Positions 1,818 to 3,576 of a stretch of 64,000 nt of DNA are shown here, piece by piece. The position numbers were made by a program, and so were the translations under genes. Within the stretch, counting starts at the first letter, position 1. Each line of letters starts with the position of its first letter. This stretch comes from Brachycybe producta (taxonomy: Eukaryota; Arthropoda; Diplopoda; Playtdesmida; Andrognathidae): the NCBI GenBank assembly GCA_036925085.1, contig JAUPFP010000004.1:2308001-2372000 (forward strand). The letters run 5' to 3'. The notes beneath the pieces are model-generated. The model was not told where the DNA came from, did no database searches, and saw only the letters and a program-made list of their open reading frames with translations.

Positions 1818-2021
1818 ACAGGCACGTAGAAAACGGGACAAACATAAGTTGGCTCCGCCCTTTGTATGACGAACGCAACTTCTAATTGGTTAGTTATGTA
1901 ATTGACGTTACATGCTCCGCTCTTTTCAACTTCGAACCACACAACAAACCAATTAGAAGTTGCCGTTCGTCATAAAAAGGGTGGAGCCAACTTCTGTTTG
2001 TCCCGTTTTCTAATTGCCTGT
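1818..2021. mobile_element. Palindromic MITE with probable 9-bp target duplication
   Basis: Ends are ACAGGCA and TGCCTGT. Long inner arms pair AAAACGGGACAAAC with GTTTGTCCCGTTTT, and CAACTTCTAATTGGTT with AACCAATTAGAAGTTG. Flanks are TAACCGATT on the left and TAACCGACT on the right, 8 of 9 bases alike, which suggests a target-site duplication. The outer ends resemble the ACAGGCAATTG family but the interior differs. Superfamily is uncertain (hAT or Mutator-like). Confidence 0.7.
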
Positions 2022-2099: not shown

Positions 2100-2130
2100 T
2101 ATCGATAAATCGATCAATAAATTATCGATA
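2100..2130. promoter_or_regulatory. Pair of TATCGATA (DRE-like) promoter motifs
   Basis: Two perfect TATCGATA octamers at 2100-2107 and 2123-2130, with an AATCGATC between them, sit 107-137 bp before the ATG at 2237. In flies this octamer is the DREF/BEAF-type core-promoter element of housekeeping genes. Placement directly upstream of a SENP8-containing unit fits a broad housekeeping promoter. Whether this organism uses DREF is inference. Confidence 0.45.
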
Positions 2131-2236
2131 TAGCTATACATTATTGATATATCGGTGTTTAATTTCGCGAATTTTTCAGTTATTTTTTCATTCACAGCTG
2201 CCGCAAAGGAGGACGTGCAACGTATAATGTATCATC

Positions 2237-2812
2237 ATGAATGTGTCACCAATTTCAGTGAATCAAGTTAAAAAGAACCTTTTCAACATTTCTGGCTCTG
2301 GAAACGCCGCTTCATCGTTCACTTCCGGTCTGTAAACAAGTTAACGGGAGAGTAAAGTAGAGCGAATGTGGCCCCTCCATAGATATACATGAGGGATCGT
2401 TTGTTATTAGATTCAACGAGAGGGCCACACTCACTGTATTTGCAACCTATAAGGTCAATATTTGAGTCTAATTATTATATGTGAATTTTTGTTACAGATG
2501 CCGCTAAGAATATGCTATTTAAATATCAGTCGGACAACGAAGTGGAATTAGCCTACAAAAAATTTAATAAAGGTTTTTAAAGTCGTCTTTCATTAATTTA
2601 TAGCGCCTTTAATGGCTTATAAGGCGTTTTCAGAGCTTACAAACCATTCTGAAAGATAAGAGTCGACATATTTGTTAAAAACAGAATTTTTTATGACCAT
2701 TTTCATAGTTCGTCATAAGCAAAGACTGAAGAAGCTGCGTAAAGAGCTTGATAACTTAAGCCAGGACGACTGGAAGTATCCTTCAGCAGAATCACTAATT
2801 GGCTTGAAGTAG
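2237..2812 (+). CDS. Unrecognised 89-aa basic helical protein, three exons
   Basis: Three exons, 2237-2327, 2498-2572 and 2709-2812, total 270 bases and read as 89 residues plus TAG. The start is fixed by an in-frame TAA at 2225 with no intervening Met. Both acceptors are good (TTACAG, TTCATAG); the donors are weaker (GTCTGT, GTTTTT). Using the better-looking GTAAAC donor at 2331 would put a stop in exon 2. The product has a serine-rich N-terminus (to about residue 30), then a probable helix rich in K, R and E (about 31-72) and a C-terminal LSQDDWKYPSAESLIGLK. There is no signal peptide or membrane segment. I do not recognise the family. The TAG is immediately followed, in frame, by the SENP8 ATG, so the two probably share an mRNA. 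The aligned phases across three exons make the gene model fairly safe even though its function is unknown. Confidence 0.75.
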
Positions 2813-3469
2813 ATGGAGCCGCAGTCCATTTCGACAGTGGATGATGATGATCCGATCGTCTTAAACTTCAATAATTCTTTACTTCGGCAATCGGATCTTT
2901 CGCTTTTAAATGGCCCTCACTGGTTAAACGATAAGATCATAAGTTTCTACTTTGAGTATTTGCAGGAAGTCGAATACAAAGACATTGAGGAGATATCTTT
3001 CGTCGGCCCGGAAGTCGTACAGTTTCTCAAGTTTGCAGAAGAAACGGATTTGAAGACTTTCTTCGAAGATATAGATATAACACGGAAAAAGTTCGTCTTC
3101 TTGGCCATCAACGATTCACAGGCATTCGATTCTCCAAGTGGATCTCATTGGAGTCTTCTCGTCTATCGTTCGCCGAATAAATTTGATCATTACGACTCTT
3201 GCGGTAATTTTAACGATAATTCTTCGAGAGGAATCGTCCGCAAACTTAAGAAACATGTGAACGAAACTTCTGATGTCGAATACGTCGCGTGCAAGTGTCC
3301 GCAACAAGTGAACTCTTATGACTGTGGAGTTCACGTGATCTTGAATACGATGATTCTAGCTCGACATTTCGTTCGCAATGAACCGATCGTATGGTACGAT
3401 CCTCACGATGTATCTCAACAAGGTCGGAGTCTGGTTAAGAATCTGATTTCTACTCTGAAAACGAAATGA
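2813..3469 (+). CDS. SENP8: SENP8/NEDP1 (DEN1), NEDD8-specific cysteine protease
   Basis: A 218-residue, single-exon C48-family (Ulp1-like) peptidase, close to the roughly 212 residues of vertebrate SENP8. This enzyme matures the NEDD8 precursor and removes NEDD8 from non-cullin substrates. The catalytic set is complete: His112 in SHWSLLVY, Asp128 in HYDS, the oxyanion Gln165 and nucleophile Cys171 in QQVNSYDCGVH. The N-terminal substrate-binding block LLNGPHWLNDKIISFYFEYL (residues 31-50) is typical of SENP8 rather than of SUMO-specific SENPs, as is the short length without an N-terminal extension. The start is the first ATG after the upstream gene's stop (TAG-ATG, no spacer) and is in the same frame. 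No introns interrupt the coding part. An AATAAA lies about 100 bp after the stop. It is probably translated from a bicistronic mRNA or from an internal promoter. Confidence 0.96.
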   Translation: MEPQSISTVDDDDPIVLNFNNSLLRQSDLSLLNGPHWLNDKIISFYFEYLQEVEYKDIEEISFVGPEVVQFLKFAEETDLKTFFEDIDITRKKFVFLAINDSQAFDSPSGSHWSLLVYRSPNKFDHYDSCGNFNDNSSRGIVRKLKKHVNETSDVEYVACKCPQQVNSYDCGVHVILNTMILARHFVRNEPIVWYDPHDVSQQGRSLVKNLISTLKTK

Positions 3470-3570: not shown

Positions 3571-3576
3571 AATAAA
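3571..3576 (+). terminator. Poly(A) signal for SENP8
   Basis: AATAAA about 100 bp after the SENP8 stop, followed by AT-rich sequence. It is the first canonical signal downstream. Confidence 0.6.

What the first reader, a model, noticed from the sequence alone, without database searches (positions are those of the whole stretch)
2709..2830. Stop codon of the 89-aa gene abuts the SENP8 start codon (TAG-ATG) in the same frame
Exon 3 of the upstream gene ends AAG TAG and SENP8 begins ATG GAG with no spacer and with no separate UTR or promoter. This implies a bicistronic mRNA (reinitiation or leaky scanning), operon-type trans-splicing using the stop's own AG, or readthrough of one TAG to make an 89+218 residue fusion tying a small helical protein to a deneddylase. 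Such physical coupling often marks a functional link, here with the NEDD8/cullin pathway.
Basis: partly seen in the sequence, partly recalled or inferred. Interest (0 to 1): 0.75.

Follow-up and report, generated by a model that had tools for sequence, protein, structure and literature searches.

The report
ANAPC16-like stop abuts SENP8 start
In an unnamed arthropod genome, a small gene that looks like a subunit of the cell-division ubiquitin ligase APC/C ends exactly where the gene for the NEDD8-removing enzyme SENP8 begins, so both proteins may well be made from one messenger RNA, which is unusual in animals.

Summary
A three-exon gene model (coding 2237-2327, 2498-2572, 2709-2812; 89 aa) ends in TAG at 2810-2812, and the ATG of an intact SENP8 gene (one match in the genome) follows at 2813 in the same frame. 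SENP8 is certain (PDB 2bkq, E 1.8e-44). SENP8 has no other Met before its catalytic core, and 42 nt separate the two conserved regions, leaving no room for separate UTRs there. Two TATCGATA boxes lie before ANAPC16 and none inside it; a poly(A) signal follows SENP8. Best reading: one bicistronic mRNA, SENP8 translated by reinitiation at the abutting UAG-AUG. A splice acceptor formed by the stop codon is not excluded. Leaky scanning, readthrough and an internal promoter find little support. No RNA data or relatives' genomes could be examined, so the transcript is inferred. The host is an arthropod, probably not an insect. Bicistronic animal mRNAs are known; this pair was not found in the papers searched.

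The parts
2100..2130 (.). Two TATCGATA boxes (DRE-like, 2100 and 2123) in the putative promoter of the shared transcript
   Evidence: 3 TATCGATA in 64 kb (1200, 2100, 2123; 0.77 expected). ATCGAT 3 times in 2081-2237 against 0.025 expected, but also 18 against 10.34 in the whole window. Meaning of DRE recalled from Drosophila; region chosen after looking.
2176..2193 (+). Two initiator-like TCAKTY motifs (2176, 2188): candidate transcription start
   Evidence: consensus recalled. A third copy lies at 2526 inside exon 2; none in 2573-2812.
2237..2327 (+). ANAPC16-like gene, coding exon 1
2498..2572 (+). ANAPC16-like gene, coding exon 2
2709..2812 (+). ANAPC16-like gene, coding exon 3, ending DDWKYPSAESLIGLK-stop
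   Evidence: Pfam PF17256 E 0.041 over residues 32-88; PDB 4ui9_E E 0.16
2810..2815 (+). Abutting TAG stop and ATG start, same frame
2813..3469 (+). SENP8 (NEDP1/DEN1), intact intronless ORF of 218 aa; H112, D128, Q165, C171 present
   Evidence: PDB 2bkq E 1.8e-44; Pfam C48 E 2e-14; invariant columns of alignment A2; residues checked
3571..3576 (+). AATAAA, first poly(A) signal after the SENP8 stop
   Evidence: others upstream at 2566 (end of exon 2) and 3176 (inside SENP8)

Best explanation
One promoter just before 2237 drives a three-exon mRNA that ends after 3571 and carries two proteins: ANAPC16 (89 aa) and, directly after its stop codon, SENP8 (218 aa). A ribosome that terminates at UAG 2810 has AUG 2813 as the next codon; a fraction of post-termination ribosomes (80S or 40S) reinitiate there, so SENP8 is made as a low, fixed fraction of ANAPC16. 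Shown: both ORFs, the abutment, the lack of space for separate UTRs between the coding ends, and the position of promoter-like and poly(A) words. Inferred: the single transcript, the splicing, reinitiation and its efficiency.
For: TAG-ATG abutment in one exon with 42 nt between the two conserved regions. SENP8 has no other AUG before its core. Two TATCGATA boxes and two of three TCAKTY motifs lie before ANAPC16, none of either in 2573-2812. Poly(A) signal about 100 nt after SENP8. SENP8 has one match in the genome, so this is its likely only source. A precedent for the layout: in an activated yeast strain UAAAUG without spacer allows second-cistron translation, ascribed to 80S reinitiation, which falls as the spacer grows (PMC11952965, passages). 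A cellular bicistronic mRNA with UGAUG is cited for mouse GAD (PMC5972666, passages).
Against: Reinitiation after long ORFs is presumed very rare (PMC5972666, passages), and upstream ORFs over 55 codons were predicted to prevent it (PMC4705651, passages); ANAPC16 has 89. No TURBS core TGGGA before the junction and no unusual RNA structure (z -1.24, 20 of 200 shuffles fold as well). A 14-codon overlapping uORF starts at 2227. A TCAKTY motif at 2526 could start a shorter transcript, and AATAAA at 2566 and 3176 could end one. No RNA was seen.
Confidence: 0.55

Rival explanations
1. The pair is co-transcribed, but a splice acceptor formed by the AG of the TAG stop (2811-2812) makes a separate SENP8 mRNA, by spliced-leader trans-splicing or by alternative cis-splicing from an upstream exon.
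For: Ciona operon genes abut without intergenic DNA (PMC2760879 section 10; PMC7986045 passages). A CTAAT branch-like word lies 17 nt before the junction. Spliced leaders occur in copepods and amphipods, where operons have not been reported (PMC7986045 passage).
Against: Pyrimidine-poor acceptor: 8 of 16 pyrimidines, 5 T, against 10-12 of 16 and 9-10 T at the three other candidate sites examined. The Ciona leader has no exact match in the genome (one leader, no mismatches allowed). The genome looks like an arthropod's by its mitochondrial gene blocks, so the tunicate precedent is distant.
Confidence: 0.2
2. SENP8 has its own promoter inside the upstream gene (2498-2812), so the two genes merely overlap.
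For: A TCAKTY initiator at 2526 and weak YYANWYY initiators at 2593, 2644 and 2697; the stretch is AT-rich and motifs cannot exclude a promoter.
Against: No TATCGATA and no TATAWAR in 2498-2812, while two TATCGATA lie before 2237.
Confidence: 0.15
3. SENP8 is reached by leaky scanning past the upstream start codons.
For: Exon 3 holds no ATG before 2813.
Against: Five ATGs precede 2813 in the modelled mRNA, three of them with A at -3. ATGs in the ANAPC16 CDS are not depleted: 4 observed, 4.12 expected from 5,000 synonymous shuffles.
Confidence: 0.07
4. Readthrough of the single TAG makes an ANAPC16-SENP8 fusion of about 308 residues.
For: One stop, same frame.
Against: Stop followed by A, not a known readthrough context (recalled). 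SENP8 has its own Met. None of the 120 listed SENP8 relatives (of 243 found) exceeds 264 aa, though lengths up to about 381 aa were eligible, and none of the 120 had a [DE]W.[FYW] word before the core.
Confidence: 0.03

Closest known systems
Abutting-ORF bicistrons translated by reinitiation (yeast UAAAUG construct, PMC11952965; mouse GAD UGAUG, PMC5972666; passages only)
   Same: Stop and start contiguous or overlapping, two proteins on one mRNA
   Different: Here two conserved genes in an arthropod; stop UAG; no RNA or protein evidence yet; the yeast case is an engineered, activated strain
Ciona SL-resolved operons with no intergenic DNA (PMC2760879 section 10; PMC7986045 passages)
   Same: Tandem same-strand genes without a spacer
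   Different: Host looks like an arthropod, no exact Ciona leader, poor acceptor; in Ciona the genes (mRNA ends) abut, here the coding regions themselves abut
ANAPC16 (APC/C subunit 16)
   Same: Best match in Pfam and PDB; C-terminal DDW.Y...E.LIGL motif; the human protein is helical over 52-110 and sits in the TPR lobe (PMC5717348 table, passages)
   Different: Scores below Pfam's cut-off; shorter than human (89 against 110 aa)
SENP8/NEDP1/DEN1 deneddylase
   Same: 36-49% local identity to the 120 listed relatives, catalytic residues present
   Different: Start codon directly follows another gene's stop

Membership tests
ANAPC16 (PF17256) | Score over the curated Pfam cut-off (25 bits) | tested here: not met
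   14.7 bits, E 0.041, yet the best of 24,736 models, covering 23-79 of 80 positions
ANAPC16 (PF17256) | Similarity beyond composition | tested here: met
   0 of 20,000 shuffles reach the pairwise score against human residues 46-105 (61, best shuffle 55). Profile of 56 of the 120 listed ANAPC16 proteins, query left out: 14.8 bits, best shuffle 9.9, 19,061 of 20,001 sequences scored
ANAPC16 (PF17256) | Only such gene in the genome | not tested
   The family search of the own genome did not complete
ANAPC16 (PF17256) | Sits in the TPR lobe of the APC/C | not testable with these tools
   Needs biochemistry
SENP8 | Closest to SENP8, not to SENP1/2/5 | tested here: met
   2bkq and 1xt9 E 1.8e-44 and 4e-44; next Ulp1 8.6e-11
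SENP8 | His-Asp-Cys triad and oxyanion Gln | tested here: met
   H112, D128, Q165, C171 invariant in 15 rows, residues checked; roles recalled
Bicistronic mRNA | Two intact ORFs without room for separate UTRs between them | tested here: met
Bicistronic mRNA | One mature transcript spans both ORFs | not testable with these tools
   No RNA data held
SL-resolved operon | Spliced leader in the genome | tested here: inconclusive
   Only the Ciona leader tested: 0 exact matches; arthropod leaders not tested
SL-resolved operon | Functional acceptor at the downstream gene | tested here: inconclusive
   AG present, CTAAT at -17, pyrimidine-poor

The most novel reading that the evidence does not exclude
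A conserved arthropod bicistron in which an APC/C subunit and the NEDD8 protease are translationally coupled by 80S reinitiation at an abutting stop-start, fixing their ratio; ANAPC16 would be easy to overlook in such lineages because it lies upstream in SENP8's mRNA.
Probability: 0.2. Interest if true: 0.75.

Novelty: new member of a known kind. Interest (0 to 1): 0.5.

Why it matters
Animal cells rarely translate two full proteins from one mRNA, and a stop codon abutting the next start is the layout at which ribosome reinitiation can be tested directly. The pair would join an APC/C subunit (a cullin-RING ligase) to the enzyme that removes NEDD8, the cullin modifier. It also suggests an APC16-like subunit in an arthropod. 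How widely APC16 occurs is told differently: a 2011 survey found it only in its two jawed vertebrates (PMC3195147 passages), while another paper speaks of homologues in multicellular eukaryotes (PMC3372440 passage); the paper titled 'APC16 is a conserved subunit' was not held.

Tried and rejected
Tunicate origin, suggested by the zero-spacer layout, was rejected: the mitochondrial contig reads under the invertebrate code with the blocks COX1-COX2-K-D and ATP6-COX3-G-ND3-A-R-N-S-E (COX1 by Pfam, other genes named by me from their translations, ATP8 not looked for; arthropod meaning recalled), and the Ciona leader has no exact match. An insect host is not favoured: in a SENP8 tree of the window and 29 of the 120 listed relatives the window falls outside the insect group (99/96), though on a long branch and with no named chelicerate, myriapod or crustacean in the tree; trnL2 is not between COX1 and COX2. 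A geophilomorph centipede was considered; the Strigamia order described in PMC4368715 (passages) differs.

A search for relatives of the 89-aa protein alone found none. A search with an alignment of it and human ANAPC16 listed 120 of 299 hits, vertebrate wherever the row named a species, so it says nothing about arthropods. Looking for the pair elsewhere failed: viral contigs gave 5 distant matches at 28-31% identity, and prokaryote genomes gave 114 relatives, 80 kept, titled Rhizobium, Bradyrhizobium, Sinorhizobium, Ensifer or Mesorhizobium; no animal. Papers (listings only): one paper, on stroke, for ANAPC16+SENP8; none for APC16+NEDP1; none for dicistronic+Den1+Drosophila; one, on antibody-driven protein degradation, for SENP8+bicistronic; none for spliced leader+operon+ascidian+Styela. 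No tRNA and no Rfam family over its threshold in the window. The bacterial promoter scan is not relevant to an animal and was ignored.

Full report
What is there. The window lies at G000:C4:2308001-2372000 of a 295.3 Mb genome in 442 contigs. The sequence at 2801-2820 reads GGC TTG AAG TAG ATG GAG CC, so a TAG stop is followed without spacer by an ATG in the same frame. The ATG opens an ORF of 218 aa that is SENP8: PDB 2bkq E 1.8e-44, Pfam Peptidase_C48 E 2e-14, 243 relatives at E <= 0.001 among 331 candidates, 120 listed. H112, D128, Q165 and C171 are present. The ORF is intact and has one match in the genome.

The upstream gene. Splicing 2237-2327, 2498-2572 and 2709-2812 gives 89 aa ending at the TAG. 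The best Pfam match is ANAPC16 (PF17256, E 0.041, 14.7 bits, below the 25-bit cut-off), and the two best PDB matches are ANAPC16 chains (E 0.16 and 0.31). The score of its alignment with human ANAPC16 residues 46-105 exceeds all 20,000 shuffles. A profile of 56 of the 120 listed ANAPC16 proteins (those of 90-135 aa, query left out) scores it at 14.8 bits, with the best shuffle at 9.9 (19,061 of 20,001 sequences scored). A global alignment matches both an N-terminal block (SGS...SF.SD.A..K.LF.Y) and the C-terminal block ending in DDWKYPSAESLIGL, 32% identity. I take it as ANAPC16 with about 85% confidence; the absolute scores are weak and a search with the protein alone found no relative. Whether the genome holds a second copy is unknown, because that search did not complete.

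Is the abutment real? SENP8 has Met only at residues 1 and 180, so AUG initiation must be at 2813. The last conserved ANAPC16 residue ends at 2806 and the SENP8 core DPIVL starts at 2849, 42 nt apart. There is no room for a 3' UTR and a 5' UTR between the two coding regions. Both donor sites look poor (GTCTGT, GTTTTT), so the splice junctions rest on homology.

Promoter and end. TATCGATA occurs three times in 64 kb, at 1200, 2100 and 2123 (0.77 expected). TCAKTY initiators lie at 2176, 2188 and 2526 of the stretch 2000-2830; the first two precede ANAPC16, the third is inside its exon 2; neither motif occurs in 2573-2812. Against this: the region was picked after looking, the motifs are recalled from Drosophila, and ATCGAT is somewhat common in the whole window (18 against 10.34 expected). 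The first AATAAA after SENP8 is at 3571; others lie at 2566 and 3176. Together these suggest, but do not show, one transcript from about 2180 to about 3590.

How SENP8 would be translated. Its ATG is the sixth in the modelled mRNA, and ATGs in the ANAPC16 CDS are not depleted (4 against 4.12 from synonymous shuffles), which speaks against leaky scanning. Reinitiation at an abutting stop-start has a precedent: in an activated yeast strain the UAAAUG junction allows second-cistron translation, ascribed to 80S reinitiation that falls with spacer length (PMC11952965, passages). A review presumes reinitiation after long ORFs to be very rare (PMC5972666, passages), and another cites a predicted limit of 55 codons (PMC4705651, passages). 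I found no TURBS core TGGGA and no strong structure (z -1.24). Readthrough is not favoured: none of the 120 listed SENP8 relatives (of 243) is a fusion.

Trans-splicing. In Ciona, tandem operon genes abut without intergenic DNA (PMC2760879 section 10). Here the candidate acceptor is pyrimidine-poor (8 of 16 against 10-12 of 16 at three other candidate sites), with a CTAAT at -17. The Ciona leader has no exact match; arthropod leaders were not tested. Spliced leaders occur in copepods and amphipods, but operons have not been reported there (PMC7986045, passage). This remains the main rival.

Host. A 15,359-bp mitochondrial contig with arthropod gene blocks (meaning recalled) and a SENP8 tree that leaves the window outside insects (99/96, long branch, 29 of 120 listed relatives used) point to a non-insect arthropod. 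The species could not be named and no relative's genome could be compared.

Verdict. The bicistronic reading is probable, not shown. Bicistronic animal mRNAs are a known kind, and this pair was not found in the papers searched.

Noticed in passing
window 1818-2021 and 932-1071: Two hairpin elements with long inverted arms (58 nt at 91%, 48 nt at 81%) bounded by CAGGCA/TGCCTG, MITE-like, upstream of the ANAPC16-like gene.
   Followed up: partly
G000:C1:12697416-12698753 and G000:C17:4027703-4029047: COX1-like copies with TGA codons, and one with a TAA, on other contigs than the mitochondrial one: probable nuclear copies of mitochondrial DNA.
   Followed up: no
G000:C442 (15,359 bp): Rearranged arthropod-like mitochondrial genome, with ND4L-ND4-H-ND5-F on the same strand as COX1 and no trnL2 between COX1 and COX2 (protein genes other than COX1 named from their translations).
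   Followed up: partly
window 2227-2271: A 14-codon uORF that overlaps the ANAPC16 start codon in another frame.
   Followed up: no
window 2566-2571: AATAAA at the end of ANAPC16 exon 2, beside a poor donor site; could allow a truncated transcript.
   Followed up: no
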